A stretch of DNA of 64,000 nt, taken from positions 36,681 to 100,680 of IMG/VR virus record IMGVR_UViG_3300022926_000003; one strand, given 5' to 3'. Below, piece after piece: positions 37,049-61,574 of the stretch. Source of the DNA: a virus. The translations under genes were made by a program, and so were the position numbers. The stretch's first letter is position 1, and every line of letters starts with the position of its first letter. A model generated the notes under the pieces. The model made no database searches. It was not told the DNA's origin and saw only the letters and a list, made by a program, of their open reading frames with translations.

Positions 37049-37116
37049 GTCATATTAACGTCATGCGAAAATGGGGATCCTCGGATCCCCTTTCGTATAT
37101 TCATGGGGTAAGGTTA
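37049..37116 (+). promoter_or_regulatory. class A promoter (copy 5)
   Basis: GTCAT at 37049 and 37060; inverted repeat GGGGATCC/GGATCCCC (37073-37090); core TATATTC at 37096 (36 bp); GGGGTAAGGTTA leader. The clearest copy. Confidence 0.8.
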
Positions 37117-37134
37117 AAGCGAAAGAAAAAACAA

Positions 37135-37515: not shown

Positions 37516-37718
37516 TGGATAAGTTAATGTTTAATTTGATTTGTGAGGTTGATATTGACCAAACTGTGGAAATGCTCCGTGAGTTACGTGAGTTAAGTGA
37601 AATGAGTGAGAGTGAACGTGAAATCTACGGATTGATCGAGGGTGATGAGTTGATTGGTTTGATGCCTACTGAGGCATTCGTACAATCAAAGGAGGAAATT
37701 TTAAGTGTTTTGAACTAA
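37515..37718 (+). CDS. hypothetical helical protein
   Basis: 67 aa, acidic, Glu/Arg-rich helices. Couples to both neighbours by TAATG overlaps. Unrecognised. Confidence 0.5.
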   Translation: MDKLMFNLICEVDIDQTVEMLRELRELSEMSESEREIYGLIEGDELIGLMPTEAFVQSKEEILSVLN

Positions 37719-38200: not shown

Positions 38201-38207
38201 TATTTAT
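38200..38207 (+). promoter_or_regulatory. class B (late-type) promoter element ATATTTAT
   Basis: Exactly 12 bases before the ATG at 38212, overlapping the stop codon of the esterase gene. Confidence 0.55.
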
Positions 38208-38211
38208 TAGC

Positions 38212-38778
38212 ATGATTAAGCTAATAGATTTACTCCTGGAGAGAGACTACCCTAAAGGAGAGTATGTTCCTTTAAGTGGGGAGGAGCTTGAACAGGCAAA
38301 AGGAGAGCTATTTGATTTAGTACAAACTGCTTATGCTCCAATTGGGGGACATTTAAAGATTAATTCCCCTAATGATATTATGGCTCCTGATATAAGTTTT
38401 TGGAGAGCCGCTGATATCGATGATGATCCTGAGTTAGATGTTACTTACTTTGGTAAGAATACATCTTTTGGTGTTAAGCACACTGGAATGGGTCACGATG
38501 GTAAGAAACCTCATATTAAGCACGTTTTAACTAGAAAAACTAGTGAGTTAAAATCCCCTGGTAACTATGTTGAGGTAAGTGGTGATGCTTATAGAGTATT
38601 TCACGAGAGAGGTGGGGTACCTGTAATTGATGATGAGGAGAAAGTAAGGGCAATATTAGGTAATAAAGATATTACTTGGTATGGAGCCCACCCCCAAAAT
38701 AAAAAACCTGGCAACGGGTGGTACTCACGTAAGATTGGGGGGAAAGAGGTGTTAAAAACAATGATCGGAAATATTTAA
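38212..38778 (+). CDS. putative packaged head protein with N-terminal leader (GNAT-like body)
   Basis: 188 aa from ATG 38212 (an upstream ATT/ATG-like extension is not needed). The start MIKLIDLLLER contains a Leu-x-Glu site after nine residues, like the capsid-targeting leaders cleaved by the T4 prohead protease. The body, with GGHLKINSPND, FGVKHTGMGHDGKK and GWYSRKIGG, resembles a family of phage proteins with acetyltransferase-like pattern. It may be a protein injected with the DNA (inference). Confidence 0.55.
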   Translation: MIKLIDLLLERDYPKGEYVPLSGEELEQAKGELFDLVQTAYAPIGGHLKINSPNDIMAPDISFWRAADIDDDPELDVTYFGKNTSFGVKHTGMGHDGKKPHIKHVLTRKTSELKSPGNYVEVSGDAYRVFHERGGVPVIDDEEKVRAILGNKDITWYGAHPQNKKPGNGWYSRKIGGKEVLKTMIGNI

Positions 38779-38780
38779 CA

Positions 38781-38788
38781 ATATTTAT
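38781..38788 (+). promoter_or_regulatory. class B (late-type) promoter element ATATTTAT
   Basis: Starts 21 bases before the ATG at 38802. Confidence 0.45.
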
Positions 38789-38801
38789 AAACAAAAATAA
38801 C

Positions 38802-40373
38802 ATGAGCTTTAGCTGGAATAAATGGAGGCAATACATAATTGAAGAAGCCTCAGTTAATGAAGAAGTAGACGGAGTAGGAGAGATTATCCCCTTCTTTCAC
38901 GATGCTATGAAAATGAATATTATCAGAGATGTTGACTACCAAAGGGCAGTTGAAGCTGGTGGTGAGAGTGAGGACCTAGATGCTTTTGAGAGTACTCAGG
39001 AATTTCAACAAATTGGTAAAAATATTATCGATGCGGCTGTCAGTACTTTAGAAAAAAAGGGAATGGAAACCCATTATCTACACCAAAAATTTGGTCAAGG
39101 AGCTAGTAACCCAATTGAAGGTGCTGATATTTCTAACGCTGTAGGTATTCTCAAGAAAGGGGGAACAAAAATAAACCCTGAAGCAGACGAGATTGCCCCA
39201 GATGATCTAGATGCCGCTGCAGATTACTTTGATAACCTAGAGGAGGATAAGTTTGACAAACCAGGTTGGGACCTTAAAGCCATTATGGACTCGTTTAAAG
39301 AGGATTTTGAAGAAGCCACTAGGGATACAGATGATATTCCATACGCTCAATCAAGAGTAGTAGATGCTTATAAAGATGTATTTGCTAAATCACACCCCCA
39401 ATTAGCAGGGGCGATTGATGCTTACTTAGATGATAGAGATAGAACAGAGAGAAGAAGTATGTTCCAAAACGTAGCTGATGATCCTGAAGTAGTAGGTAGA
39501 GATATGATGAGAGAGTTTAGGGATGATGGTGGTGAAGAGGATTTTGGTGGGGACCCCCAAGATTTTGGTAACGATCTCGAGTCAAGGTTCCAGTTTATTG
39601 CTCCTAGGTTAGCAAGACATCCTGGTAAGAAGAAGCAACTTAAGCCTCTTTTCCTACAAATGACAGACGCTATGGAAGAGGATGATAAAGTAGCATTTGA
39701 TGATGCTTTTGTACCAGCTATGCAAATAATGGGGTATGGGGATATGTTAGAAGAAGTGAATGATCAAACAATTGATGAAGCAATAAATGAAATGGCTTTG
39801 GATAGAGCTATGGAAATAGCCAATAAGTTAGATACTATGCAAAATGATCTCGAAGCAACACTTAGTGATGATGAAATAGATACTCTTAGTGATGCTATTA
39901 TATTACTTAGGCAAAAAAAAAGCCTAGATGAGAAAGTAGGGGTAAGTAGTGATCCTCTCTTAAAAGCCATTGAGGCCGAGTTAGCTAAAATTTTAACTGA
40001 TGAGGAGATAAATATTCTTACTACCCTTGCTAAGGAGCAAATGAATGAGTCCCCTATGGGAGCGGGTACTGGTATCAAACTTGCAACCCAGTATTTGCTT
40101 AGAAGGGTATTGGGTCCTATTATTTTAGGTCCTTTAGTTAAGAAAATATTTGATAAAATGGTTACTAAGTTCCCTGCTAAAAAGGAACTAATAATGAAAA
40201 TGGAACCTATAGTACAAGGGGCAATTGCTGCTGGTAAGATAGGTAGTATAATTGAATTAAATAAATTTATAAGAGAAAACAGTGAAGAACTATCTGAAAT
40301 GTTAGTTTCTATGAGCTCTGAAATGGCTACAATGCTTAAAGATACAGTTAAGGGCTTAGTTAAAAGAAAATAA
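38802..40373 (+). CDS. large putative packaged head protein with N-terminal leader
   Basis: 523 aa. The start MSFSWNKWRQYIIEEAS has an Ile-x-Glu site at about residues 12-14, like the leader of the array at 48-52 kb. The body is long, acidic and helical; residues about 420-460 (LATQYLLRRVLGPIILGPLV) are amphipathic or membrane-active. No enzymatic motif seen. Late expression is expected. Confidence 0.55.
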   Translation: MSFSWNKWRQYIIEEASVNEEVDGVGEIIPFFHDAMKMNIIRDVDYQRAVEAGGESEDLDAFESTQEFQQIGKNIIDAAVSTLEKKGMETHYLHQKFGQGASNPIEGADISNAVGILKKGGTKINPEADEIAPDDLDAAADYFDNLEEDKFDKPGWDLKAIMDSFKEDFEEATRDTDDIPYAQSRVVDAYKDVFAKSHPQLAGAIDAYLDDRDRTERRSMFQNVADDPEVVGRDMMREFRDDGGEEDFGGDPQDFGNDLESRFQFIAPRLARHPGKKKQLKPLFLQMTDAMEEDDKVAFDDAFVPAMQIMGYGDMLEEVNDQTIDEAINEMALDRAMEIANKLDTMQNDLEATLSDDEIDTLSDAIILLRQKKSLDEKVGVSSDPLLKAIEAELAKILTDEEINILTTLAKEQMNESPMGAGTGIKLATQYLLRRVLGPIILGPLVKKIFDKMVTKFPAKKELIMKMEPIVQGAIAAGKIGSIIELNKFIRENSEELSEMLVSMSSEMATMLKDTVKGLVKRK

Positions 40374-40386
40374 GGGGGGTTCTCGC

Positions 40387-40440
40387 GTCATATTGACGTC
40401 ATGCGAAAATGGGGAGCTCCGGCTCCCCTTTCGTATATTC
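40387..40440 (+). promoter_or_regulatory. class A promoter (copy 6)
   Basis: GTCAT at 40387 and 40398; inverted repeat GGGGAGC/GCTCCCC (40411-40428); core TATATTC at 40434 (36 bp). The first usable ATG (40446) is 12 bases from the core. Confidence 0.8.
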
Positions 40441-40445
40441 ATGGC

Positions 40446-40649
40446 ATGATGAAAGTTACGATCAAGAAAGCAGAAACGTTTAGGGCCTACGGCCGCTGTT
40501 ACGTGCCCGTTAACGCTCTGAGCGTTGTGTTTAACAAGCGTGGACTGGTTAAGCAGTTCGACAAGACCGAAATGGTGGTTCACCCCACCAAAGGTAATCT
40601 TTACCCACTGACTGAGGGTATTAGTGAGTACATTAAAATCGTTGATTAA
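40446..40649 (+). CDS. hypothetical protein
   Basis: 67 aa from ATG 40446 or 40449. Basic, beta-rich, unrecognised (MMKVTIKKAETFRAYGRCYV). The start is only 12 bases downstream of the promoter core, so the mRNA is probably leaderless. Confidence 0.55.
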   Translation: MMKVTIKKAETFRAYGRCYVPVNALSVVFNKRGLVKQFDKTEMVVHPTKGNLYPLTEGISEYIKIVD

Positions 40650-40855
40650 TGGTTTATTTTGAGAAAATGGGGAGAGGGGTCCACCAGGTCCCTGGCTATA
40701 TAGCTGCTAAAAAAATTGTCTCAATCCGACAATGCCCCGTAAATGAAGATATAACAGACATTTACATGGCGGATGGTAACCATATATCGGTACCAGGGAA
40801 ATTAGAAAAAGTAGCAAACTATATTTTTGATGAAGGATCACACCATATATTTTAA
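40649..40855 (+). CDS. hypothetical protein
   Basis: 68 aa, beta-rich, unrecognised. TAATGG overlap with the gene before. Confidence 0.5.
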   Translation: MVYFEKMGRGVHQVPGYIAAKKIVSIRQCPVNEDITDIYMADGNHISVPGKLEKVANYIFDEGSHHIF

Positions 40856-40857
40856 TT

Positions 40858-41007
40858 ATGTTTAAAGATATTAATGAACTAAATGACGCCCTATATGGGT
40901 TATTGGAAAAAGGATTTGTTGAGATAGCTGGGATTAATGAAGATGGGGAATTAACTTACCGTCTAACTAAAAAAGGAAGAGATTTCGCTGAAAATTACGA
41001 AGGATAA
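40858..41007 (+). CDS. small winged-helix-like protein
   Basis: 49 aa. ALYGLLEKGFVEIAGINEDG then LTYRLTKKGRDFAENY has the helix/wing ending of small winged-helix proteins (…LTxKGRxxA). Possible transcription regulator or remnant. Confidence 0.45.
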   Translation: MFKDINELNDALYGLLEKGFVEIAGINEDGELTYRLTKKGRDFAENYEG

Positions 41008-41078
41008 TGGGATATATTATTATTGCAGGAATTATGGCTGTTGCTGTATTTTTTGAACTTTTTATTGTTGAAAAGTAA
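41007..41078 (+). CDS. tiny membrane peptide
   Basis: 23 aa, one hydrophobic helix. TAATGG coupled at both ends, so probably translated. Confidence 0.35.
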   Translation: MGYIIIAGIMAVAVFFELFIVEK

Positions 41079-41356
41079 TGGGTGGATTTGGAGTAGGAGT
41101 GGCACTTTGTGCCCTCCTCACACTTGTTAATGTGGGGTTTATTTGGTATTCTAAACAAATGCCTGGGCCTACCTCAGTTAGCGTAATTCAACTAGGAATG
41201 TTTGTTAAATTCGTTCTTGGTGTAGGAGTTTCGACTCTTGTGATTAAATTCATGCCTGTAAACGTTATTATATTTGCTATAACCGTGGGTCTCTATGTGT
41301 GTATAGCATTTCCTGTAATGGCTTTTTTCATGGTTAAAAACGATATTTCAAAATGA
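41078..41356 (+). CDS. membrane protein
   Basis: 92 aa with three predicted helices (about 3-24, 38-58, 62-85). Unrecognised; holin-like size and topology, but no lysis gene lies beside it. Confidence 0.5.
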   Translation: MGGFGVGVALCALLTLVNVGFIWYSKQMPGPTSVSVIQLGMFVKFVLGVGVSTLVIKFMPVNVIIFAITVGLYVCIAFPVMAFFMVKNDISK

Positions 41357-41613
41357 GTAGAGGACGTCCATCACTTGAAGAGCCTAAAGCTCGTACTAAG
41401 TATACACAAGAATTCACGGATAGTGAGGGGAATATTTCCACTTGGTACTTTGATTTTGATAAGTATGTTGGTGGGCTTTATAAAGTAGAGGTAGAGGAAG
41501 TAGAGATAGAAATTAAAGATGAGGACCTACCACTCACACAACGTAAGTTCCTCAACCCAGCAAACGGGAAAATGGTTGGGTATGGTAGAGCTAAACAACT
41601 TAAATTGATATAA
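41353..41613 (+). CDS. hypothetical protein
   Basis: 86 aa, charged, with an acidic strand (VEVEEVEIEIKDED) in the middle. ATGA overlap with the membrane protein gene. Unrecognised. Confidence 0.5.
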   Translation: MSRGRPSLEEPKARTKYTQEFTDSEGNISTWYFDFDKYVGGLYKVEVEEVEIEIKDEDLPLTQRKFLNPANGKMVGYGRAKQLKLI

Positions 41614-41614
41614 A

Positions 41615-41707
41615 ATGGGTAGGAGATACACAGATAGTGCTAAGTTTGTGGGTTTAGGACTTATAGGAGTACTAATAACAATACTATGCACAATATTTCT
41701 AAATTAA
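41615..41707 (+). CDS. tiny membrane peptide
   Basis: 30 aa, basic start MGRRYTD and one hydrophobic helix. Overlaps the next gene by 22 bases. Confidence 0.35.
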   Translation: MGRRYTDSAKFVGLGLIGVLITILCTIFLN

Positions 41708-42036
41708 TACAAGGAACTTTATTGTTCCTATTAGGTCAAACATTAGTTTGGTACCAGATAAACGGACAATTTATTAGTGATTGGATTAAGGAACGTCCCT
41801 TAGTTATGTCTTTAATGGGCGTTCCTATATCTTTTGTCTATATTTATGCCACACAGTATTTGGTGGAGGCATTCGACGGGGAAATGTGGCCCCAACGACT
41901 AATAGGATTCGCAATGGGTATGATAGCGTTTGCTTTTCTTACCTGGTTACATTTAAACCAAGGTATAACACTTAAAACAGGTATTACTTTAATTTTAGCT
42001 ATTGCAATTGTATTAATTCAAATACTATGGAAATAA
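41686..42036 (+). CDS. membrane protein, three to four helices
   Basis: 116 aa with hydrophobic segments at about 8-22, 40-60, 71-90 and 96-114. Unrecognised. Another small membrane gene in a run of four, which may modify the host envelope. Confidence 0.5.
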   Translation: MHNISKLIQGTLLFLLGQTLVWYQINGQFISDWIKERPLVMSLMGVPISFVYIYATQYLVEAFDGEMWPQRLIGFAMGMIAFAFLTWLHLNQGITLKTGITLILAIAIVLIQILWK

Positions 42037-42065
42037 AGGAATGACTACAGTAAAACCAAATTATC

Positions 42066-42233
42066 ATGTACGTAAATCCAACCTGGGAGCTAAAATTATT
42101 AGGAGAAGAAGGTACAGGCGTGTTAGTAGAAACACCAGAGGGTGAGCAATTAACTTTAGAAACAAAACAATTAGAAAATTACGCTAGAGTAGGTAATAAG
42201 CTAATTCCTAAAAATAAAATAAACTGGCTTTGA
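42066..42233 (+). CDS. small beta-rich hypothetical protein
   Basis: 55 aa, with a SH3-like pattern (GTGVLVETPEGEQLTLETKQL). An Arg-rich 34-aa frame at 42041-42145 overlaps it in another frame and cannot be excluded. Confidence 0.45.
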   Translation: MYVNPTWELKLLGEEGTGVLVETPEGEQLTLETKQLENYARVGNKLIPKNKINWL

Positions 42234-42299
42234 GTCATATTAAAGTCATACGAAAATGAGGATCTTCGGATCCCCTTTCGTATATTCATGGGGTAAAGC
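42234..42299 (+). promoter_or_regulatory. class A promoter (copy 7)
   Basis: GTCAT at 42234 and 42245; GGATC-TTCG-GATCC inverted repeat (42260-42273); core TATATTC at 42281 (36 bp). Confidence 0.8.
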
Positions 42300-42312
42300 A
42301 AAAAAGAAACAC

Positions 42313-42552
42313 ATGACTATTTTTGATGTATTCGCAGGGTTGTTTGCCATTGTTTGTATTGCAAGTACAATTGCCTCGTTTTTTATGGGTATTTTTCTTG
42401 TAGTTACTTATTATGACCTTGATAGGGCAATTGTTAAGTTTTTCGACCCTGAGTACTATGATCGGAGGACTCATGAGTTGCTTTATGGAGATGAGAGTTA
42501 TGAGGAGTACAAGCGGATGATGGATGCCGCCCGCAAGTTTAAAAATCAGTAA
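42313..42552 (+). CDS. membrane-anchored hypothetical protein
   Basis: 79 aa from ATG 42313. One hydrophobic N-terminal segment (about 2-36, long enough for one or two helices) and an acidic, aromatic cytoplasmic tail. Unrecognised. Confidence 0.55.
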   Translation: MTIFDVFAGLFAIVCIASTIASFFMGIFLVVTYYDLDRAIVKFFDPEYYDRRTHELLYGDESYEEYKRMMDAARKFKNQ

Positions 42553-42573
42553 TCTAAATAAGTTTTAATAATT

Positions 42574-42990
42574 ATGGCAACACGAGCAAGCATAGCCATC
42601 ACTAATATGATGGACGAACCAGTAGCATGTATTTACCACCACTATGATGGTAACCCAGATTGTTTGGGAGTAATCATTAAGGAGTTCCTTGAAGGTGGTA
42701 AGTTTGTTAATGGACTAAAAGCAGGAGCAGAGTTGGGTACCCAGTTTAATGGTATTGAGGACTTTGCAACACAACTTATTGTGCACCTTAAAGGTGATGC
42801 TCCAGGTATGGTTTACCTAGAAACACCATCAAATTTTGGTGAGTTGGGTGAGGATTGGTTATATAGAGTATGCGCTCATAGTGAGGGTGCTACACTTGAG
42901 TGTTTAGCTAATCACCCAATGATGGATTTTGAAAACGACTGGGAAGAGCTCAGTGAAGTATTGGAACGGGAAGCACTTAAAAACAAGTAA
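42574..42990 (+). CDS. conserved hypothetical protein of the MATRASI type
   Basis: 138 aa. The start MATRASIAI and the segment IYHHYDGNPDCLGVIIKEFL are typical of a family seen in phages and bacteria with no known function. It looks like a compact alpha/beta domain with conserved His-His and Asp. No enzyme motif can be named. Confidence 0.6.
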   Translation: MATRASIAITNMMDEPVACIYHHYDGNPDCLGVIIKEFLEGGKFVNGLKAGAELGTQFNGIEDFATQLIVHLKGDAPGMVYLETPSNFGELGEDWLYRVCAHSEGATLECLANHPMMDFENDWEELSEVLEREALKNK

Positions 42991-42991
42991 T

Positions 42992-43102
42992 ATGCACGAG
43001 AATATTTATTTTATTGTAAACGCCCTTTATTTTGTGGGTGTGGTTGCAGCAGGTGGATTTGCCCTGTATTGTTTAGTTGATTATATATGTAAATTGTTTT
43101 AA
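42992..43102 (+). CDS. tiny membrane peptide
   Basis: 36 aa, one long hydrophobic helix (YFVGVVAAGGFALYCLV). Unrecognised. Confidence 0.35.
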   Translation: MHENIYFIVNALYFVGVVAAGGFALYCLVDYICKLF

Positions 43103-43103
43103 T

Positions 43104-43424
43104 ATGGATAACCAACAAGGTCCTCTTGATAAGTTCCTACAGGAAAACTCAATAATGTATAAAGGAGTTGATGGAAATACCTTCAACACCCAGTTAGATG
43201 AGTACTATATTGATAGGGAGGGGTATTCAGTACAAGCTATGGACCCTAATTTAGGATGTGCTGCTTGCCAAACTAATAACCCACCTGATTGGTGTTTTAA
43301 TCCTAGTGATCCTTGTTATGATTCATCAATACCCATTGATGGAGACATTCATATACTAATATTTGCAGGTGTAATACTTGCAGCACTTACTCTAAGATCT
43401 CGCGTCATGTTGACGTCATCTTAA
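43104..43424 (+). CDS. hypothetical protein with C-terminal membrane helix
   Basis: 106 aa from ATG 43104. The N-terminus GPLDKFLQENSI resembles LDQFLVENDI in the gene at 43908. Five cysteines (CAAC, WCF, PCY) suggest disulphides or a metal site. One helix near the C-terminus (IHILIFAGVILAALTL); the last residues are encoded by the next promoter's GTCAT repeats. Confidence 0.5.
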   Translation: MDNQQGPLDKFLQENSIMYKGVDGNTFNTQLDEYYIDREGYSVQAMDPNLGCAACQTNNPPDWCFNPSDPCYDSSIPIDGDIHILIFAGVILAALTLRSRVMLTSS

Positions 43425-43471
43425 ATTTTGGGATTGCAGAGAACCCTTCGTATATTCATGGAGTAAGGTTG
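43404..43471 (+). promoter_or_regulatory. class A promoter (copy 8)
   Basis: GTCAT at 43404 and 43415; imperfect inverted repeat GGGATT/GAACCC; core TATATTC at 43451 (36 bp). Both GTCAT boxes lie in the coding end of the upstream gene. Confidence 0.78.
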
Positions 43472-43509
43472 CAGCAGCAGCGAGAACAAAAAAACAAAAC
43501 CCAAACAAC

Positions 43510-43836
43510 ATGAGTAAGTTTCAGAACCTGATCAATAAGACCCAAGAGGCATGTGATAACCTCGGTATCAATGTTACTAACATTGAGGTGTTCCGGGATA
43601 GTGAGAACGGTCGTTATTACCTGAGTGGTGATTACGTGTTGCCTAGTGCATTTGGTGGTGTTGTGAGTCGTAGCAAGACAACTCGTGTTGAGGAGTTGTT
43701 CCGCATGAACGAGCAGAATGCGTTTGAGATGTTCATGATGGGATTCAGTGAGAATCGAGTTGCTTATTGCAACGCGAGTGATGAGGAAATCCTCGAGTTT
43801 GGAATGTGCCACCCAGATACCTACCCGGTGGCGTAA
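43510..43836 (+). CDS. hypothetical protein
   Basis: 108 aa, acidic, soluble, unrecognised. Higher GC and host-like codon choice (CTG, GTG, CGT) compared with late genes. Confidence 0.55.
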   Translation: MSKFQNLINKTQEACDNLGINVTNIEVFRDSENGRYYLSGDYVLPSAFGGVVSRSKTTRVEELFRMNEQNAFEMFMMGFSENRVAYCNASDEEILEFGMCHPDTYPVA

Positions 43837-43900
43837 TCTTAAAGTCATTTGAAGGATTGGAAGGTCTGATCCTGGTTCGTATATTCATGGAGTAAAGTTA
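43833..43900 (+). promoter_or_regulatory. class A promoter (copy 9)
   Basis: GTAAT (43833, containing the stop of the gene before) and GTCAT (43844); GGAT/ATCC inverted repeat; core TATATTC at 43880 (36 bp). Confidence 0.75.
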
Positions 43901-43907
43901 CAGCGAC

Positions 43908-44417
43908 ATGCAAAACAACAACAACACCCCCCAAGTCCTGACCACTGAAGCAGGCCAACAGATCCTGGATCAGTTCCTGGTTGAGAACGACATCCCCTGT
44001 ACTGCGGATTGCATCATTGAAGAGTTGAACACTGACACCTGTAATATCGGTCTCTTCAATGCAAACAGCATTTCAATCCTGCCTGGATATGAGGGGGAGA
44101 TGATTGAGGGGAGAGGAGGTGTTACTTTCATTGATGAGAATAGCAACCGGCTCTACGTTCGGATGTCTTACTTTGGAAGTGAGGAGTTGGTTGGTTTTAC
44201 GAAGTATGCCTCTCAGGAGGAATATGGAAGCGCTTCGTTTCGGGTCTCGAGGTATGTGGCTGGATTGAGTGGTGGAGAGGATGTGGTTTTTCAGCTTGGT
44301 TTGAATATTGCCTCGATGGTTGAGTTTGGTACTGGAGGTGTTAATGATGAGGTTCAACAATCCCAAGACCTCATAGATCAAATTGAGAGGGAATTCCAGG
44401 AACGGCTCGGTGAGTAA
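43908..44417 (+). CDS. hypothetical protein
   Basis: 169 aa, acidic and Gly-rich, soluble. The start (QQILDQFLVENDIPC) resembles that of the gene at 43104. Unrecognised. Confidence 0.55.
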   Translation: MQNNNNTPQVLTTEAGQQILDQFLVENDIPCTADCIIEELNTDTCNIGLFNANSISILPGYEGEMIEGRGGVTFIDENSNRLYVRMSYFGSEELVGFTKYASQEEYGSASFRVSRYVAGLSGGEDVVFQLGLNIASMVEFGTGGVNDEVQQSQDLIDQIEREFQERLGE

Positions 44418-44482
44418 TATTGACGTCATCTAAAAATTTGTGGGATCCAGAATCCTTTCGTATATTCACGGAGTAAAGTTAC
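44414..44482 (+). promoter_or_regulatory. class A promoter (copy 10)
   Basis: GTAAT (44414, over the stop of the gene before) and GTCAT (44425); GGAT/ATCC inverted repeat; core TATATTC at 44461 (36 bp). Confidence 0.75.
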
Positions 44483-44488
44483 AGCGAC

Positions 44489-44746
44489 ATGACAAAAACG
44501 CAGAAAAAACAAGAAGTGACTCGGATGTTCCACGAGTTTATTGACAGCAAAGGATTCATTGCTCATGATGAGGGACACGGTTATTGGTATGTTCATCCTA
44601 AGAACAACGGTTTCAGCACTACGATGTTCCAAGTGACTCGGAAGTTTGAAGTAGATACTTTTGGGTGTGAGAGTGAGCATGTTTTGGAGTTTGCCGACAT
44701 TTTGAAGGAAAAGCTCAATGAGTATATGGCAACGGTTAATCTTTAA
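44489..44746 (+). CDS. hypothetical protein
   Basis: 85 aa, alpha/beta pattern (HEGHGYWYVHPKNNGF-like centre around 30-45), unrecognised. Behind class A promoter copy 10. Confidence 0.55.
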   Translation: MTKTQKKQEVTRMFHEFIDSKGFIAHDEGHGYWYVHPKNNGFSTTMFQVTRKFEVDTFGCESEHVLEFADILKEKLNEYMATVNL

Positions 44747-44757
44747 TTAGAGTAATC

Positions 44758-45324
44758 ATGGAGAAAGTCACACACAAAACCCAAACGTTGGTTGGTAAGG
44801 GCCTGAGAGCTAGGTGGGCAGAGCGGGAGATGATTTTGGATAATAAGTTCCAAGACTCCCATAAGATTGCAGTGAGTCAAAGCAACTTGGCCACAAGAGA
44901 GGACAATGATTGCGTAGTTAGAGCGTTTATGGCTGTACTAGATGTTAGTTATGATGTTGCTCATGGGTGGGTGAAGAAGCATATGAATCGAAAATTTAAG
45001 CGCGGTACTTACACTGCTATTAATATTGTGAATGTGTTGGGTAAGGTGAAAAATGGTTATAAGCTGAGTGCTTATGGATGTCATCCTGATAAGAAGTGGA
45101 TTATGGGACCTAGAGGATTCAAAACGATCACTAACCCACGTTACAAGAACAAGAAAGTTGGTTACACGTTGAAGTCATTTATGGAAACACATCCTAAAGG
45201 ACGGTTTTTTGTGATTGTAGAAAGGCACGCAGTTGCAGTTGTTGATGGTGTGTTATATGGAAATACTCAGGAAAAGTATTGGGGGTTGTACCGCCGAGTG
45301 AATTGGGTTGTTGAGTGTAAATAA
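44758..45324 (+). CDS. putative papain-like cysteine peptidase
   Basis: 188 aa. REDNDCVVRAFMAVLDVSYD (about 47-66) has a helix-capping NDC as in papain-fold nucleophiles, and FFVIVERHAVAVVDGVLYGN (about 152-171) carries a His in the classic HAVAVVDG context. The body between is basic and may bind nucleic acid. A protease that acts on host proteins early in infection is possible. Family match is by pattern only. Confidence 0.5.
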   Translation: MEKVTHKTQTLVGKGLRARWAEREMILDNKFQDSHKIAVSQSNLATREDNDCVVRAFMAVLDVSYDVAHGWVKKHMNRKFKRGTYTAINIVNVLGKVKNGYKLSAYGCHPDKKWIMGPRGFKTITNPRYKNKKVGYTLKSFMETHPKGRFFVIVERHAVAVVDGVLYGNTQEKYWGLYRRVNWVVECK

Positions 45325-45339
45325 GAAAATAGAGAGAGA

Positions 45340-45477
45340 ATGATTTGGCACGTTTTGATAGTAATGCTTGCAAGTGTTTATTTTGGTTTTAAACTACTTG
45401 CGTTTACATTTAAGCTGATTGTTAAGGCATGGATGTGGTTGTTTGGTAAAATTTTAGGAATTGAAAACCCTTATTAA
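45340..45477 (+). CDS. small membrane protein
   Basis: 45 aa with two hydrophobic segments (about 3-20 and 24-38). Unrecognised. Confidence 0.45.
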   Translation: MIWHVLIVMLASVYFGFKLLAFTFKLIVKAWMWLFGKILGIENPY

Positions 45478-45536
45478 AATGATTTTTATTATATTGTATC
45501 ATCTGATTGTACGTTAATTTAAAAAACAAGTAAAAA

Positions 45537-45713
45537 ATGGATAGAAATAGAATTGAAAACCAGATTAAGTACATCGAGCAGGTAGTTGCCGAATTGGATA
45601 GTGCTTACGATAATAGAGAAGATGACTTCCTGCTCCATAGTTTGTTTGGACAAGCACTTGGTGCACTGAAGGGAGTACACGATACACTTGAAAATATTGT
45701 TGAAAATGCCTAA
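45537..45713 (+). CDS. small helical protein
   Basis: 58 aa, acidic, all-helical, unrecognised; stop is one base before the next ATG. Confidence 0.5.
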   Translation: MDRNRIENQIKYIEQVVAELDSAYDNREDDFLLHSLFGQALGALKGVHDTLENIVENA

Positions 45714-45714
45714 T

Positions 45715-45903
45715 ATGAGCTATTGCAGGTTTGAGAACACCTATAAAGATCTCATTGATTGTTTGGAGAACATTCACGTTGGTGCTAGTAATGAAATTGA
45801 TGAAATGTACCGACAGAAAATGATTCAACTATTTACTGAAGTTGCTGAGGGTTGGGATGGTGATATTGTGAGTTATGCTGAAAGCCAAAATTTGCCAATA
45901 TGA
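45715..45903 (+). CDS. conserved small phage protein (MSYCRF type)
   Basis: 62 aa from ATG 45715. The start MSYCRFENTYKDLIDCLEN is a recurring pattern in small proteins of phages and bacteria, with two conserved Cys; function unknown. ATGA overlap with the next gene. Confidence 0.6.
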   Translation: MSYCRFENTYKDLIDCLENIHVGASNEIDEMYRQKMIQLFTEVAEGWDGDIVSYAESQNLPI

Positions 45904-46175
45904 ATAAATTTAATATTGAAGAAGTCAAGGCGATGGGTCTTGAGGAACAGATCGTTGAGTTGGAAAAGCAAATCCAACGTGTTAAGGATACTAGGGAGCG
46001 AAACGCTGCTAATATTAGACGCTTGGAGGAAGTGAATGAAAACTGTAGCCAACAGCTGGAAATCCTCCTCGAACTGAAATGGAACCGTAAATTCCAACAG
46101 CGGCTGGATGAGTGGATGGGTGATATGAATGAGATGGGTGATCCAGATAATGAATGGACGGATAAAATCAAATGA
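45900..46175 (+). CDS. coiled-coil protein
   Basis: 91 aa; residues about 14-70 form a continuous coiled coil (LEEQIVELEKQIQRVKDT). Probably dimeric. ATGA overlap with the previous gene. Confidence 0.5.
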   Translation: MNKFNIEEVKAMGLEEQIVELEKQIQRVKDTRERNAANIRRLEEVNENCSQQLEILLELKWNRKFQQRLDEWMGDMNEMGDPDNEWTDKIK

Positions 46176-46237
46176 ATAGATCAATAAAATCTATAATATG
46201 GGAATACTGGATATTACCATGGAGCAATATAATTTAA
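46172..46237 (+). CDS. possible 21-residue peptide
   Basis: Starts in the stop of the coiled-coil gene (ATGA); hydrophobic and Trp-rich. Very short, so weakly supported. Confidence 0.25.
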   Translation: MNRSIKSIIWEYWILPWSNII

Positions 46238-46250
46238 AATCAAATCAAAA

Positions 46251-46508
46251 ATGAATATAACAATGGAACAAGATACTATCTACATGTCGCTGTATGATTA
46301 CCTCGGTAGAGCAGCTGGACAACAATTGGGAGCGGAGGTAAGTAAAGCCGCCGTGGAGAAAAAAATTGAATTTAAACAACGGTTTATCTCCAATCCTGCG
46401 TATCATGGGAACGTTCATCTGTATCCTATGGAGTTCTTGGAGGAATATTTCAAGGGTGACATGTCAAGGGTAAAGGGTGACACAAGGGTGAGTGAGGATG
46501 TTGGGTGA
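46251..46508 (+). CDS. hypothetical protein
   Basis: 85 aa, soluble, unrecognised. An internal ATG at 46263 is an alternative start. Confidence 0.5.
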   Translation: MNITMEQDTIYMSLYDYLGRAAGQQLGAEVSKAAVEKKIEFKQRFISNPAYHGNVHLYPMEFLEEYFKGDMSRVKGDTRVSEDVG

Positions 46509-46536
46509 ATAAGGGTTATGTGTGGTATGTGACAGA

Positions 46537-46590
46537 CCGGGGGAGTGTTATCTAACACGGAGTGTTTTGATGTAAAACCCCCTCCCCCGG
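46537..46590 (+). other. GC-rich nested hairpin
   Basis: CCGGGGGAG (46537-46545) pairs with CTCCCCCGG (46582-46590), with GTGTTA-TC-TAACAC (46545-46558) inside. In an otherwise empty 197-base gap. No T-run follows at once, so it is a weak terminator candidate or a structural RNA element. Confidence 0.45.
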
Positions 46591-46630
46591 GGCCCCAACC
46601 TAAATAAATCGAAGGATATATCTTTTTTTC

Positions 46631-46698
46631 GTCATTTCAAAGTCATACGAAAATTTGGGGGTCCGGACCCCATTTCGTATATTCATGGGGTAAAGTTA
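46631..46698 (+). promoter_or_regulatory. class A promoter (copy 11)
   Basis: GTCAT at 46631 and 46642; perfect palindrome GGGGTCC/GGACCCC (46658-46671); core TATATTC at 46678 (36 bp). Confidence 0.8.
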
Positions 46699-46705
46699 CA
46701 GCGAC

Positions 46706-46966
46706 ATGGAAAACAACGTTCAATCCCCCATCACGATTAAGGAAGCAGCATTCAATTACCACAAAGGTGATTTTAAAGCATTTGAAATGTGGATTGAAAC
46801 CCATAAGCGTGATCATGGTCGTTTTACCCAACTTGATGCTGTAATGCTGAAGTGGGAAGTTGAGCAGTGCATCATGAGGGAAAACGCAGTTATGCTTAAT
46901 GCACTGGATTTCCAGCTGGATGGAAAGATCGACAAGTACGAGACCTTCGAGATGGCGTCATCTTGA
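46706..46966 (+). CDS. hypothetical protein
   Basis: 86 aa, helical, soluble, unrecognised. Its last codons (GCG-TCA-TCT-TGA) contain the first GTCAT box of the next promoter. Confidence 0.55.
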   Translation: MENNVQSPITIKEAAFNYHKGDFKAFEMWIETHKRDHGRFTQLDAVMLKWEVEQCIMRENAVMLNALDFQLDGKIDKYETFEMASS

Positions 46967-47024
46967 GGTCATGCGAGGATGTGGATTTGCGGATAACCGT
47001 TCGTATATTCATGGAGTAAGGTTA
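46957..47024 (+). promoter_or_regulatory. class A promoter (copy 12)
   Basis: GTCAT at 46957 and 46968; core TATATTC at 47004 (36 bp); small CGG-ATAA-CCG hairpin before the core; GGAGTAAGGTTA leader. Confidence 0.78.
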
Positions 47025-47070
47025 CGGCCGAAACGAGAAAAGTAAAAAAACCCAAAAACCCAAACCCAAA

Positions 47071-48098: not shown

Positions 48099-48106
48099 AT
48101 ATTTAT
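48099..48106 (+). promoter_or_regulatory. class B (late-type) promoter element ATATTTAT
   Basis: Exactly 12 bases before the ATG at 48111; would drive the internal-protein array. Confidence 0.6.
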
Positions 48107-48110
48107 CATC

Positions 48111-48251
48111 ATGAAGCATTTGCAAGAAGCTAAAATGAATTATTTTCAGCATTGGTGGTGCGCAACAACATGTGGTGTAGCACTTTTAATTCACGCTTGG
48201 CTTCCAAACGTATTAGAAAATTACACATCAAACAGAATTTGTAAAAAATGA
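48111..48251 (+). CDS. small membrane protein, DUF6356-like
   Basis: 46 aa: MKHLQEAKMNYFQHWWCATTC then a hydrophobic stretch with HAWLP. The HxxEAxMxYFxHW start and the HAxxP ending resemble small single-helix proteins of the DUF6356 type, common in aquatic bacteria and phages; function unknown. Its stop overlaps the next ATG (ATGA). Confidence 0.5.
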   Translation: MKHLQEAKMNYFQHWWCATTCGVALLIHAWLPNVLENYTSNRICKK

Positions 48252-48835
48252 AAGAATTACAAAGATTTAGACAATTCCTCGCAGAAGATAGAGGAGAATT
48301 TGGTCAAGAGTCACTCGATAAGCTCTTCGATACCGTTGAAGCTATGGGTGAAGGCCCAGTACAGCAAAAAGCAATGGACATGATGGAGGATGGTGCTTTC
48401 TTCCCAGAAGAAGGAACATCCCCCGCAGTTAACCAAACTCAAGAGGCCGTTGAGGAGCTCAACGCCGTTAGAAACAGTACAGATGATGAGGAAGAAATAG
48501 AAGAAGCACAATTGGACCTTGATGCTATAATCCTCATTAAAAACGCCGTTAAGAAAACAGGACCAGTTTCTTACGGGGAAATGGGGCAATCATATAACTA
48601 CTACGTTAAAGGAGATGATTTGTTTACCCAAACCAGAGAAACATTTGAAGTACCAACCAACGAAGGTGAAGAGGTAAACGAGCAAGAATTAGACATTGAG
48701 AACCCAGGCAACCCTCTTTACGATTTAAATAACGATGAGGAAGCCGTTAAATACCTTAATGATCTTATAGACAAATATGGAGAAACAGTAGTCCAACTTT
48801 GGATTACTAGCGGTAACTATCCCCAAAGTTATTAA
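48248..48835 (+). CDS. leader-tagged packaged protein 1
   Basis: 195 aa. The start MKELQRFRQFLAE is the leader shared by six consecutive genes and ends in Leu-Ala-Glu, the (L/I)-x-Glu site cut by T4-type prohead proteases. The body is very acidic and helical, with NYYVKGDDLFTQT-type strands at 115-128, unrecognised. As with T4 internal proteins (leader MKTYQEFIAE) it is probably packaged in the head and injected with DNA. Confidence 0.68.
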   Translation: MKELQRFRQFLAEDRGEFGQESLDKLFDTVEAMGEGPVQQKAMDMMEDGAFFPEEGTSPAVNQTQEAVEELNAVRNSTDDEEEIEEAQLDLDAIILIKNAVKKTGPVSYGEMGQSYNYYVKGDDLFTQTRETFEVPTNEGEEVNEQELDIENPGNPLYDLNNDEEAVKYLNDLIDKYGETVVQLWITSGNYPQSY

Positions 48836-48839
48836 TAAA

Positions 48840-49274
48840 ATGAAAGAATTACACACATTCAGAAAATTCCTCGCAGAAGGACAAATCAACGAAAACCTTG
48901 CAGGAATGAAAGCAGGTAAGTTTAATGAGGATGACAGATACAAAACCCTATACGTATTTTCACCTTCTAAAATTGAGGATATAACATACGGTGAAGAAGA
49001 TTTAGACAATGAAGTTGATATCCCTTCAGGTAAGTACCACGCTATACTTTGGCACAATTCAGATTTAGAAGTTTATACCGCTAACAGTGAGGAAGAATTA
49101 GTGAAGGAATTAGAAGAAGATTTCTTTAACGAAGGTGCATTTGGAGATTTTGAGGGATTGAAAGCAGCCGCTAACGATTCAGAACCAGATGGTGATTCCA
49201 ACCACGGAATGGCTTTGTTTGTTGATGGTAAATTAGTAGCAGGCCCTCAAGGTGGGGTAGAAGTATACAAATAA
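48840..49274 (+). CDS. leader-tagged packaged protein 2
   Basis: 144 aa. Leader MKELHTFRKFLAE, predicted cut after Glu13. The mature part is acidic with an alpha/beta pattern (DRYKTLYVFSPSKIEDI, GKYHAILWHNSDLEV), unrelated to its neighbours beyond the leader. Five bases separate it from the previous gene. Confidence 0.68.
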   Translation: MKELHTFRKFLAEGQINENLAGMKAGKFNEDDRYKTLYVFSPSKIEDITYGEEDLDNEVDIPSGKYHAILWHNSDLEVYTANSEEELVKELEEDFFNEGAFGDFEGLKAAANDSEPDGDSNHGMALFVDGKLVAGPQGGVEVYK

Positions 49275-49281
49275 TAATAAA

Positions 49282-49581
49282 ATGAAAGAATTAAACGCCT
49301 TTAGAAAGTTTCTAGCCGAAAACATTGCTCCGGACCAAACCATTTATAGCGTCAAATACCAAGACGAAAGGGAGGGATTAGAGGCAACTCTTTACGTTGC
49401 AGCAGACAGCAATGAGGAGGCAGAAACAATGGCCGACCAGTATATGAAAGACAAATATGTAGACTCATATGAGTACTACAACTCAATGGAGTTAAGCGTT
49501 CCATTTGAAAAGTTAGACCCCGAAGAACAAGAATTATTTAAAGGCAACATTGCCGATTTTGGAATAGACAACTACGCATAA
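49282..49581 (+). CDS. leader-tagged packaged protein 3
   Basis: 99 aa. Leader MKELNAFRKFLAE; the mature 86 residues form a small alpha/beta domain (YSVKYQDEREGLEATLYVAA) rich in acidic and Tyr residues. Confidence 0.66.
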   Translation: MKELNAFRKFLAENIAPDQTIYSVKYQDEREGLEATLYVAADSNEEAETMADQYMKDKYVDSYEYYNSMELSVPFEKLDPEEQELFKGNIADFGIDNYA

Positions 49582-49587
49582 AACACC

Positions 49588-49947
49588 ATGAAAGAATTAA
49601 ATACATTTAAACGGTTTCTCGCAGAAGAACAAATCAACGAAGAAATAGCAACCAACGAAAAAGATATAGAGATTATCGCAGATTTAGATGCTTGGAAGTC
49701 ACATAGGTATCTATTAGATAGAGGGAATAAAGAGGAGATTATGGTAAAATATAAGGACAAAATTGAGAAACTATCCCCAAATACACCCGAAGAAAAATAT
49801 GAATTACTCGTCAATACAGTCGGATATCATAACAGTGATGAAGCTAAGAAGGAGTTTGAACGAATAACTAACGAATATTATAATCATCCATTGGTTCAGT
49901 ATAAAGACATTTTGTGGAAAAGGGACAAATGGTATAGTGGGGGTTAA
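49588..49947 (+). CDS. leader-tagged packaged protein 4
   Basis: 119 aa. Leader MKELNTFKRFLAE followed by EQINEEIA, which is also close to the start of protein 2 (GQINENLA). Helical, charged body ending in KWYSGG. Confidence 0.66.
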   Translation: MKELNTFKRFLAEEQINEEIATNEKDIEIIADLDAWKSHRYLLDRGNKEEIMVKYKDKIEKLSPNTPEEKYELLVNTVGYHNSDEAKKEFERITNEYYNHPLVQYKDILWKRDKWYSGG

Positions 49948-49971
49948 ATAAAGCTTGAAAAATAAAACAAC

Positions 49972-50472
49972 ATGAAAGAACTAAAAGCATTTAGAAAGTT
50001 CCTTAATGAATCCCCAGCGTTTACTAGGAATAGATCAGTTGCTAGGGAATCAATTCAAGAATTTTTTGGGCCTTTTAAAAAAAACTCTAAAAAACAAGAA
50101 CTCCTATCTATAGCAAAAAACCTAAGCCACTCAATGAATGGGGCAGGTGCTAATAAAGAAACATGGCGTGAACTTACAGATACTATAAAACATAATATAT
50201 GGATGGTCACCCCCACTCCCTTTAATGTAACAAAAATGGTATTAGATGATTGGGAGGTAGCTTTAAAAAAAGACACTAAAAGGAAACAAAGAGGGAAAAC
50301 CCCTAATGACCCTATTACAGTAGGTTTAATAGCTGCAGGTAACGCCCGTATTGTAGAAGAAGTTATAAAAAAAGCCGTTGAAGAAATGGGTGGTTTAGTT
50401 TCATATGAAGAAAATAATAAAACCTATACTTATGAAATTAAAAATGGGAATTTATTTACATATATAAAATAA
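49972..50472 (+). CDS. leader-tagged packaged protein 5
   Basis: 166 aa. Leader MKELKAFRKFLNE (Leu-Asn-Glu). Unlike the others the body is basic and Lys-rich. The C-terminal strand pair (GGLVSYEENNKTYTYEIKNG, LFTYIK) resembles the end of protein 1's central region (VSYGEMGQSYNYYVKGDDLF), which suggests a common small domain. Confidence 0.66.
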   Translation: MKELKAFRKFLNESPAFTRNRSVARESIQEFFGPFKKNSKKQELLSIAKNLSHSMNGAGANKETWRELTDTIKHNIWMVTPTPFNVTKMVLDDWEVALKKDTKRKQRGKTPNDPITVGLIAAGNARIVEEVIKKAVEEMGGLVSYEENNKTYTYEIKNGNLFTYIK

Positions 50473-50488
50473 GAACATATAAAACAAC

Positions 50489-52138
50489 ATGAAAGAGTTA
50501 AATAACTTTAGAAAATTTTTATCCGAGAATACTACTATGCCCGATTTCACCATCATGGGTGAAACATTTAACTTCTCCGATATATGTCCCAGCGCTCATA
50601 AATTGGTCCAAAACCAAGCTATTGTCCACCAGGGATTCAGCAGAACCGCCCCTACCGTATTGAACTTCGCTATAAAACACCGTAATTTCTTCAATTTAGA
50701 GCGCAAAGCACTGGGTTCTATGGGAATCACAGTTGATGAATATAATGACGATGTAACACGGTTATACACCGAAATCCTCAACATTGCCGACAAATTAGGC
50801 GTGCGTAAAAAAGCCAAAGAATACATGGACATGCACATGGCTAAAATCAAGGATGCCGGCTTTAAAGCTAGTGAACCCGGTGGTAGCTCCGATCGTAATT
50901 TTGAGGAAGGGTACTACGATCCAACCGATAAGGAACTTGATTATGCCGACGAGATTGAATACGAACAGGATTGGAGAGACGAACAAGATGCTCTCTTTGG
51001 TAAGATAAGGGAGGTACGTAGTAGGTTAGAGAGTGAGGTGGAAGGATATACGGATCTACATGAGAATGATGTCGTTTTAGGAGCCTTCTTGGGAGAATCA
51101 AACGCTGAGAGAAACCCATTGCGTGGTATTAAAAATATGTTCCAAGCTATTATTCCCCTTAAACTTGATACTAGCACATTAGGTTCTTTAGGCTATGCTA
51201 AAGCTACTGGTATTAAAGGAGATTGGAATGCTATCCAATTTTTTACCGAATATCCTGGCAAGTATGAGAAATATAAGGATCTTTTAAGTCAAGCAAATAA
51301 GTTTGGGGTTAATATTAATCCTAGCACTAACGTTCTTGATGCTTATAATGCAATTTCTGCTGCTGCTAATGAGTATGATTTAAAAGAGGGGCCACTTGAT
51401 GAAAAGCAAAAATATGCCGATGATCAACTCAAGTTTAAAGAGGGTGATACTGTTTACTTTAAAAATGCTAAAGGGGGTGAAAAACTCCCTATGACTATTA
51501 CGGGCCCCGGTAAATTTATGAAATCTAATAGATTAGATGCGGGTGGTAAAGAAGTAGTATTCCCTGTTAAAGGTGGCCCCGGTGGTAAAGGAATGTATGC
51601 TGCGGATGACTTGGTTAAAAAAAATTTAGAAGAAGGACCAATCCAAACTTTTACCCAAGGGCTTGATACATATACTAAATATCCTCACGTTTTTGTCTTT
51701 AAAGTACGTACTATGAGTACGGATAAGCAAGGTGGTAAGTTTGTACATGATTCTCGTTATGAAATTGAAGAAGATATGACTTTTAATGAAGCGGTAAAAC
51801 AAGCCGAATATTTTATTAGTTTACCCGAAACCATTGGAGTCAATGTAAACCTCTATTATACTACAGGCAATACCGAAGGACGATTAGGAGGCCAAGTTGA
51901 AGTATTAAGATGGACACACGATGCTTGGTATAAAAAGGCTAAATCCGAGTACATCCAAAATGCAGAAAAAAATAAAAACGAGGATATTGAAGCCGAACGT
52001 ATCATTGCTATTCGTAGATGGTTAAATTCTTCTAGTATAGGTCGTCAACCTCAAAACGTAGATAATCAGGAAGAGTCATGGTCTACTGCTGTTAGTAGTA
52101 TGAAGCAAAAAGTTGCAGATATTTTAGCCACCAAATGA
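50489..52138 (+). CDS. leader-tagged packaged protein 6 (large)
   Basis: 549 aa, by far the largest of the series. Leader MKELNNFRKFLSE (Leu-Ser-Glu). Helical N-terminal part (20-250), a KOW/SH3-like segment FKEGDTVYFKNAKGGEKLPM (about 312) and a C-terminal domain with long strands. No enzyme motif is recognised. Its size is similar to T4 Alt, also packaged with a cleaved leader, but no ADP-ribosyltransferase motif can be seen. Confidence 0.64.
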   Translation: MKELNNFRKFLSENTTMPDFTIMGETFNFSDICPSAHKLVQNQAIVHQGFSRTAPTVLNFAIKHRNFFNLERKALGSMGITVDEYNDDVTRLYTEILNIADKLGVRKKAKEYMDMHMAKIKDAGFKASEPGGSSDRNFEEGYYDPTDKELDYADEIEYEQDWRDEQDALFGKIREVRSRLESEVEGYTDLHENDVVLGAFLGESNAERNPLRGIKNMFQAIIPLKLDTSTLGSLGYAKATGIKGDWNAIQFFTEYPGKYEKYKDLLSQANKFGVNINPSTNVLDAYNAISAAANEYDLKEGPLDEKQKYADDQLKFKEGDTVYFKNAKGGEKLPMTITGPGKFMKSNRLDAGGKEVVFPVKGGPGGKGMYAADDLVKKNLEEGPIQTFTQGLDTYTKYPHVFVFKVRTMSTDKQGGKFVHDSRYEIEEDMTFNEAVKQAEYFISLPETIGVNVNLYYTTGNTEGRLGGQVEVLRWTHDAWYKKAKSEYIQNAEKNKNEDIEAERIIAIRRWLNSSSIGRQPQNVDNQEESWSTAVSSMKQKVADILATK

Positions 52139-61244: not shown

Positions 61245-61574
61245 ATGAAACAAAACGCGTTAAAATCATTAATAAAACAAGCAGTTAAGGAAGCAATACA
61301 AGAAGAATTAAAAGATATTTTACTTGAGGCAGTCAAATCCCCTAAACAAACAGTTGTAGAAAATATTCAACCCCAAAAGGTTGTTGATGGTCCTTCAATG
61401 AGCTCAAAGGAAAAAAGAGCAGCATACCAAAATATATTAGGAGATATGCGAACTCAATTTACTTCTCAAAATGTACCCAAACCTTTTAATCCCCAAGGAG
61501 GGGTACCTGGGGGGGACTTACCTGCAGGAGAAGTTAACATGGATCAAATAATGGGGTTAATGAATAGTAAATAA
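61245..61574 (+). CDS. hypothetical virion protein
   Basis: 109 aa. Helical N-terminus (ALKSLIKQAVKEAIQEELKD) followed by a Pro/Gly-rich low-complexity part. TAATGG overlap with the gp25-like gene. Not recognised. Confidence 0.5.
   Translation: MKQNALKSLIKQAVKEAIQEELKDILLEAVKSPKQTVVENIQPQKVVDGPSMSSKEKRAAYQNILGDMRTQFTSQNVPKPFNPQGGVPGGDLPAGEVNMDQIMGLMNSK

What the first reader, a model, noticed from the sequence alone, without database searches (positions are those of the whole stretch)
48248..52138. Array of six proteins sharing a 13-residue leader with a prohead-protease site
Six consecutive genes begin with MKEL-x-x-F-(R/K)-x-F-L-(A/N/S)-E and then diverge completely. The T4 internal proteins IPI-III and Alt carry the leader MKTYQEFIAE, which targets them into the prohead and is cut by gp21 after (L/I)-x-E (known). 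The array therefore probably encodes a set of effectors packaged with the genome and injected at infection, with the leader serving as a transferable tag.
Basis: partly seen in the sequence, partly recalled or inferred. Interest (0 to 1): 0.86.

Follow-up and report, generated by a model that had tools for sequence, protein, structure and literature searches.

The report
Tagged head-cargo gene array, marine phage
A T4-like virus, probably of marine Flavobacteria, carries six neighbouring genes whose proteins share one short front tag that very likely sends them into the virus head during assembly and is then cut off, and relatives swap different cargo behind this tag.

Summary
A degenerate DNA pattern recovers the leader from about 44 other IMG/VR stretches, almost always at an ORF start, on unrelated bodies. 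A second, commoner leader type (MDNFDL[KR]KYLAE) shares arrays with it. Supporting a prohead-targeting propeptide: contigs with the leader encode gp21-type protease and gp23; gp21's own N-terminus carries [LI]xE; proteins encoded just upstream of gp21 contain the same F-x-x-F-L-x-E motif; nearly identical bodies occur under either leader; fused cargo keeps internal leaders; a close relative exchanged cargo but kept leaders. The window's record is a fragment without gp21/gp23, and nothing here shows packaging, cleavage or injection. Five of six bodies are acidic, unlike T4 IPs, and none has a known domain, so 'effectors' is only plausible (one tagged relative is zeta-toxin-like). Verdict: new variant of a known kind, the T4 capsid-targeting-sequence system.

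The parts
48100..48107 (+). TATTTATC, one mismatch from the late-type promoter element TATTTATA
   Evidence: In the window TATTTATA lies 3-17 nt before + strand gene starts in 7 of 11 cases (0.7 expected); same element before late genes of phage immuto. Weak for this single site; leader genes as a set are not enriched.
48112..48251 (+). 46-aa ORF (MKHLQEAKMNYFQHWWCATTCGVALLIHAWLPNVLENYTSNRICKK) overlapping the first leader gene by ATGA; probably the first gene of the operon
   Evidence: Read directly from sequence; coding status inferred from the overlap.
48248..48835 (+). Leader gene 1, 195 aa; body pI 4.05
   Evidence: 84% identical body in L020
48248..48286 (+). Leader 1 MKELQRFRQFLAE, predicted cut after Glu13
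48533..48628 (+). Part of protein 1 that resembles part of protein 5 (45% over 33 residues)
48840..49274 (+). Leader gene 2, 144 aa; body pI 4.16; body replaced by an unrelated one in the close relative L020
48840..48878 (+). Leader 2 MKELHTFRKFLAE
48879..48893 (+). GQINE: possible second cleavage site I-x-E following leader 2
   Evidence: Second [LI]xE within 9 residues in 37 of 78 nonredundant leaders, 5.4 expected
49282..49581 (+). Leader gene 3, 99 aa; body pI 4.05
   Evidence: 95% in L020
49282..49320 (+). Leader 3 MKELNAFRKFLAE
49588..49947 (+). Leader gene 4, 119 aa; body pI 5.11; absent from the L020 array
49588..49626 (+). Leader 4 MKELNTFKRFLAE
49627..49641 (+). EQINE: possible second I-x-E site after leader 4
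49972..50472 (+). Leader gene 5, 166 aa; the only basic body (pI 9.6), the most IP-like
   Evidence: 98% in L020
49972..50010 (+). Leader 5 MKELKAFRKFLNE
50362..50460 (+). Part of protein 5 that resembles part of protein 1
50489..52138 (+). Leader gene 6, 549 aa; body pI 5.3; relatives of 694 aa (L020) and 495 aa (L050)
   Evidence: AF2 model unusable (pLDDT 35)
50489..50527 (+). Leader 6 MKELNNFRKFLSE

Best explanation
The 13-residue leader is a capsid-targeting propeptide of the T4 kind. Its helix-like hydrophobic face (L4, F7, F10, L11) binds the prohead core, so that whatever is fused behind it is enclosed when the gp23 shell forms around the core. The phage's gp21-type serine protease then cuts after the final Glu ([LI]-x-E), in some proteins also at a second [LI]-x-E a few residues on, which frees the body inside the head. 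The six genes are a late operon of exchangeable cargo. Relatives swap bodies under the same leader, leaders before the same body, and fuse bodies with a leader kept inside as a probable cut site. Freed bodies most likely travel with the DNA into the next host cell; some are probably takeover or counter-defence proteins, others may only help build or fill the head. Shown by sequence: shared leader, its spread, its association with gp21/gp23 phages, motif copies in proteins encoded beside gp21, exchange of leaders and cargo. Inferred: targeting, cleavage, packaging, late expression, injection, effector role.
For: Leader conserved at residue but not codon level. Pattern scan: leader in about 44 further contig stretches, nearly all at ORF starts, bodies unrelated; second leader type near the start in 88 of 90 ORFs. 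Pooled set: 195 bodies in 91 clusters, 64 singletons, 10 clusters with both leader types; bodies up to 93% identical from the residue after the leader Glu under different leaders. 14 of 43 leader contigs (many short fragments) encode Peptidase_S77 and 12 encode Gp23. gp21 N-termini carry [LI]xE near residue 18-20 in nearly all of 13. Proteins encoded just upstream of gp21 have 9 [FYW]xx[FYW][LIV]xE sites against 0.7 expected, one inside MKELNTFKKFLNE. Second [LI]xE after the leader 37/78 against 5.4 expected. Internal leaders in fused cargo. In sister contigs arrays lie a few genes upstream of terminase, portal and gp21 on the same strand. In cultured Flavobacterium phage immuto two type-B leader genes lie directly before terminase, one behind a late-type promoter. 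T4 control: the same approach finds IPII and IPIII. T4 facts: residues 4 and 7 target, 8 and 10 process, cut after L/I-x-E (PMC9026906).
Against: The 100,680-base record has no gp20-gp23, so the protease is not seen in this phage. Leader length and sequence differ from T4 MKTYQEFIAE; the likeness is a spacing motif ([FY]-x-x-F-[LI]-x-E), not demonstrable homology. Bodies are mostly acidic (median pI about 4.3 across the set), unlike T4 IPs. No window body has an assigned function. The window's array is not next to the head genes; it lies about 10 kb before baseplate genes gp25 and gp6. Half of the gp21-adjacent proteins lack the motif. Counts are not independent samples (shared ancestry), so P values are rough.
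Confidence: 0.78

Rival explanations
1. The tagged proteins are mainly prohead core or scaffold helpers (like gp22, gp67, gp68): they are targeted and cut, but serve head assembly and are not effectors for the next host.
For: Bodies strongly acidic (median pI about 4.3; five of six in the window), like core proteins; the same motif lies in gp21-adjacent proteins.
Against: Core components should be conserved; these bodies are among the most variable genes seen, 64 of 91 clusters are singletons and cargo is exchanged between close strains. One tagged body is a zeta-toxin-like kinase.
Confidence: 0.22
2. The leader targets another virion part (baseplate hub, neck or tail) and the [LI]-x-E end is incidental.
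For: In the window the array lies nearer to baseplate than to head genes; other N-terminal classes (MKxxxLKxxIKEAVKEAI) occur directly before gp25.
Against: Motif copies in proteins encoded next to gp21, [LI]xE in gp21 itself, excess of second [LI]xE sites; arrays upstream of terminase, portal and gp21 in sister phages.
Confidence: 0.06
3. A tandem gene family: six paralogues whose N-terminus is constrained (for example for translation initiation) while the rest diverged; no tag function.
For: Tandem order, one strand, same start context; proteins 1 and 5 share a stretch.
Against: Codons differ while residues are kept, which speaks against an RNA-level role; the same body occurs under type A and type B leaders with the switch at the leader Glu; the leader occurs inside fused proteins.
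Confidence: 0.06
4. A host-membrane or secretion targeting helix of proteins made early in infection.
For: Leaders are amphipathic with a basic face (hydrophobic moment 0.44-0.58).
Against: Type B leader, which shares cargo with type A, is not amphipathic by the same measure (0.14); strict terminal Glu (invariant in 76 and 92 sequences); late-type promoters before some leader genes.
Confidence: 0.04

Closest known systems
T4 capsid targeting sequence (CTS) of internal proteins IPI, IPII, IPIII and Alt, cut by gp21
   Same: Short N-terminal leader on unrelated bodies; hydrophobic positions 4 and 7; terminal aromatic-x-x-F-[LI]-x-E; T4-like phage with S77 protease in relatives; bodies variable between close strains.
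   Different: 13 not 10 residues (one extra helical turn); six genes in one array; two exchangeable leader types in the clade; second cleavage-like site; internal leaders in fused cargo; bodies mostly acidic and unrelated to IPs; T4 exact leader only in IPII and IPIII.
Flavobacterium phage vB_FspM_immuto (NC_055915)
   Same: Closest cultured relative: gp23 of a leader-bearing contig 59%, window gp6 46% identical; four type-B leader proteins, gp21-type protease annotated.
   Different: Only type-B leaders, in three places; bodies not shared with the window; leader proteins annotated as hypothetical (one as adenosyltransferase).
Head ejection proteins of giant phage SPN3US, cut by protease gp245
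   Same: N-terminal propeptides removed by a prohead protease at a T4-like motif; many head cargo proteins (PMC7411985).
   Different: Propeptides of about 110-130 residues in the best-described cases, not a short common tag.
Polyvalent proteins (Iyer et al. 2017)
   Same: Injected multidomain phage proteins of variable make-up, some processed before packaging (PMC5512222).
   Different: Recognised by known enzymatic domains in large fusions; here small bodies without known domains behind a cleavable tag.

Membership tests
CTS-tagged head proteins (T4 kind) | Short N-terminal leader with key hydrophobic residues at 4 and 7, ending in [LI]-x-E | tested here: met
   L4, F7 and L-x-E in all six; terminal Glu invariant in 76 tagged proteins
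CTS-tagged head proteins (T4 kind) | Same leader on otherwise unrelated bodies | tested here: met
CTS-tagged head proteins (T4 kind) | gp21-type (S77) protease in the same phage | tested here: inconclusive
   None in the window's 100,680-base fragment, which also lacks gp20-gp23; present in 14 of 43 leader contigs
CTS-tagged head proteins (T4 kind) | Leader motif related to sites in the prohead core or protease | tested here: met
   in relatives only
CTS-tagged head proteins (T4 kind) | Leader removed by the protease; mature protein in the virion | not testable with these tools
   needs virion proteomics
CTS-tagged head proteins (T4 kind) | Protein enters the host with DNA | not testable with these tools
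   needs infection experiments
T4 internal protein families (IPI, IPII, IPIII, Alt) as homologues | Bodies homologous to an IP or Alt | tested here: not met
   No convincing Pfam or PHROG hit for any of the six; 76 tagged proteins gave no IP or ART family
T4 internal protein families (IPI, IPII, IPIII, Alt) as homologues | Small basic bodies (typical of IPs, not strictly defining) | tested here: not met
   Only protein 5 is basic (pI 9.6); the others are acidic
Polyvalent proteins | Known effector domains fused in one large protein | tested here: not met
   fused cargo with internal leaders exists in relatives but without known domains

The most novel reading that the evidence does not exclude
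Flavobacterial T4-like phages run a modular head-cargo system. Two interchangeable targeting tags, tandem protease sites and polyprotein fusions with internal tags let them load and rotate a changing set of proteins, part of them toxin-like or counter-defence, into the virion; it is among the most variable parts of these genomes and serves the arms race with the host.
Probability: 0.5. Interest if true: 0.78.

Novelty: new variant of a known kind. Interest (0 to 1): 0.64.

Why it matters
If right, a simple N-terminal signature identifies virion-packaged cargo genes of a widespread but little-studied group of marine phages. At least 91 body clusters can be listed from sequence alone, nearly all of unknown function, and a cultured phage (immuto) exists in which this can be tested by virion proteomics. 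It would extend the T4 capsid-targeting principle beyond enterobacterial phages and show how cargo is exchanged (tag swapping, polyproteins), and it would offer a second set of short tags for loading proteins into phage heads.

Tried and rejected
Peptidase_S77 in the window's own record: none; the record is a fragment. Looking for its head genes through gp6 relatives: contigs near-identical to the window phage end before the head genes. Relatives of the window's bodies in IMG/VR: only the same phage and one close strain in the direct searches; protein 6 not in cultured phages. AlphaFold of protein 6: pLDDT 35, discarded. AlphaFold of a cargo family found under both leaders: pLDDT 69, no PDB or BFVD match at E below 0.001; leaderless homologues of that body exist in a jumbo phage and a cyanophage. 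Bacterial genomes: one hit, a probable phage contig in a Flavobacteriales MAG. Late promoter as general support for leader genes: 7 of 88 against 16% background, so no support overall, probably because most leader genes lie inside operons. My memory that T4 gp68 starts with the CTS was wrong. Microcystis phage Mel-JY01: a loose type-B-style pattern gave one hit, not recognised as a leader gene.
Full report
What is there. Six consecutive genes at 48248-52138 encode proteins of 195, 144, 99, 119, 166 and 549 residues that all start MKEL-x-x-F-[RK]-x-F-L-[ANS]-E. By residue frequencies about 5e-8 such N-termini are expected in the whole record. Leader residues are kept while codons vary, so selection acts on the peptide. 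A 46-codon ORF (48112-48251) overlaps the first gene by ATGA, and TATTTATC lies 4 nt before it. TATTTATA is a promoter-like element of this phage (7 of 11 copies just before + strand genes, 0.7 expected) and stands before late genes of the cultured relative immuto. The single site before the array is weak evidence.

Which virus. The window is 36681-100680 of a 100,680-base virus record. Its gene content (clamp and clamp-loader-like proteins, GroEL/GroES, gp25- and gp6-like baseplate proteins) is that of a T4-like phage; gene names read from translations are inference except where a search is cited. The gp6-like protein is 46% identical to that of Flavobacterium phage immuto. The record has no gp20-gp23; it and two longer records of the same phage (109,773 and 109,695 bases) lack S77. 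So the protease of this phage is inferred from relatives.

How widespread. A degenerate DNA form of the leader, scanned over IMG/VR, matched 48 stretches; about 44 are true leader genes at an ORF start and a few are chance matches. Of 43 such contigs, many of them short fragments, 14 encode Peptidase_S77 and 12 encode Gp23. Reading these contigs showed a second leader type, M-[DE]-N-F-[DN]-L-[KR]-K-[YF]-L-[AV]-E, often in the same array. Phage immuto has four type-B leader genes, two directly before terminase.

Why it is a tag. The pooled 195 bodies fall into 91 clusters, 64 of them singletons, and ten clusters contain both leader types. In the clearest pair (L043:7041 and L114:10967) the bodies are 93% identical from the first residue after the leader Glu, while the leaders are MKELYRFRQFLAE and MDNFDLKKYLAE. 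One cargo family also exists without leader in a jumbo phage and a cyanophage. In L020, a relative with 91-98% DNA identity in the longer shared stretches, gene 2 has another body behind nearly the same leader, gene 4 is missing and an extra 84-residue leader gene is present. In seven tagged proteins a leader or its end (LAEGKLLKE) recurs inside, between parts that are separate genes elsewhere, or a type-A leader sits inside a type-B protein.

Why it is a prohead tag with a protease site. T4 gp21 cuts after [LI]-x-E; in the T4 CTS residues 4 and 7 direct targeting and 8 and 10 processing (PMC9026906). The new leader has hydrophobic residues at 4 and 7, and its end F-x-x-F-[LI]-x-E matches the spacing of Y-x-x-F-I-A-E in T4. 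As a positive control, the T4 record searched with the corresponding pattern returned IPII, IPIII and gene 61.1. In the leader clade gp21 carries [LI]-x-E near residue 18-20 in nearly all of 13 sequences. Proteins encoded just upstream of gp21, where T4 has core proteins gp67 and gp68, carry the aromatic-x-x-aromatic-[LIV]-x-E motif in about half the cases, nine sites against 0.7 expected. One of them contains MKELNTFKKFLNE. A second [LI]-x-E follows within nine residues in 37 of 78 nonredundant leaders against 5.4 expected; in the window this holds for genes 2 and 4. These counts come from related sequences, so the P values are only a guide. In sister contigs the arrays lie a few genes upstream of terminase, portal and gp21 on the same strand.

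What the cargo does. Unknown. None of the six bodies hits Pfam or PHROGs convincingly, and 76 tagged proteins gave almost nothing. Of 92 more, one is a zeta-toxin-like kinase (E 5.5e-15). Bodies are mostly acidic (median pI about 4.3; phage background 5.8), protein 5 excepted (pI 9.6), whereas T4 IPs are basic. This leaves room for a core or scaffold role. High turnover, as with T-even IPs (PMC3012670), favours an arms-race role for part of the set. Injection is inferred only by analogy.

Comparison and novelty. The principle (short CTS, variable bodies, gp21 cut) is known from T4, and its use as an evolutionary vehicle for cargo has been proposed (PMC9026906). In the papers searched I found no report of such leaders in Bacteroidota phages, of arrays of six, of two exchangeable leader types, of tandem sites or of internal leaders; many papers are not held, so this is not proof of absence. 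I file it as a new variant of a known kind; it is not a member of the IP protein families, since the bodies are unrelated.

Noticed in passing
window 37048-47032 (copies at 37048, 40386, 42233, 43403, 43832, 44413, 46630, 46956): Eight copies of a 77-nt intergenic repeat, most standing before a small gene, with a GC-rich inverted repeat in several copies (GGGGATCCTCGGATCCCC) and a nearly invariant TTCGTATATTCATGG; probably a promoter or regulatory element.
   Followed up: no
window 38802-40373: 523-aa protein starting MSFSWNKWRQYIIEEASVNEE, leader-like (W-x-x-Y-I-x-E), behind an exact TATTTATA element; may be another head-targeted protein.
   Followed up: partly
L341 367-531 (T4 gene 61.1): T4 gp61.1 (54 aa, hypothetical) begins MKTFKEFIKE, a CTS-like leader; its NISIGTTSGAVVNKGP resembles gp23 NIAAGQTSGAVTQIGP next to the gp23 cleavage site.
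   Followed up: no
L119 13675-14139, L117 25061-25456: Another N-terminal class in immuto, MKKQILSEQF[RK]RMQ[KF]LAGIITES, resembles the C-terminus of its scaffold protein (EQVSRWQKLAGIIK); possibly a further prohead tag that copies the scaffold.
   Followed up: no
window 61245-61574; L118 32525-32944: N-terminal class MKxxxLKxxIKEAVKEAIQEELKDILLEA in the gene before gp25, conserved in immuto and G002, and similar starts on other proteins.
   Followed up: no
L243 8743-9561: Type-B leader fused to a zeta-toxin-like kinase domain, the only tagged body with a clear enzymatic family.
   Followed up: partly
G000:C1 1-1974: Very long low-complexity reading frames on both strands at the left end of the record (VPEEPEVP... 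repeats), probably a collagen-like tail protein or a repeat region.
   Followed up: no
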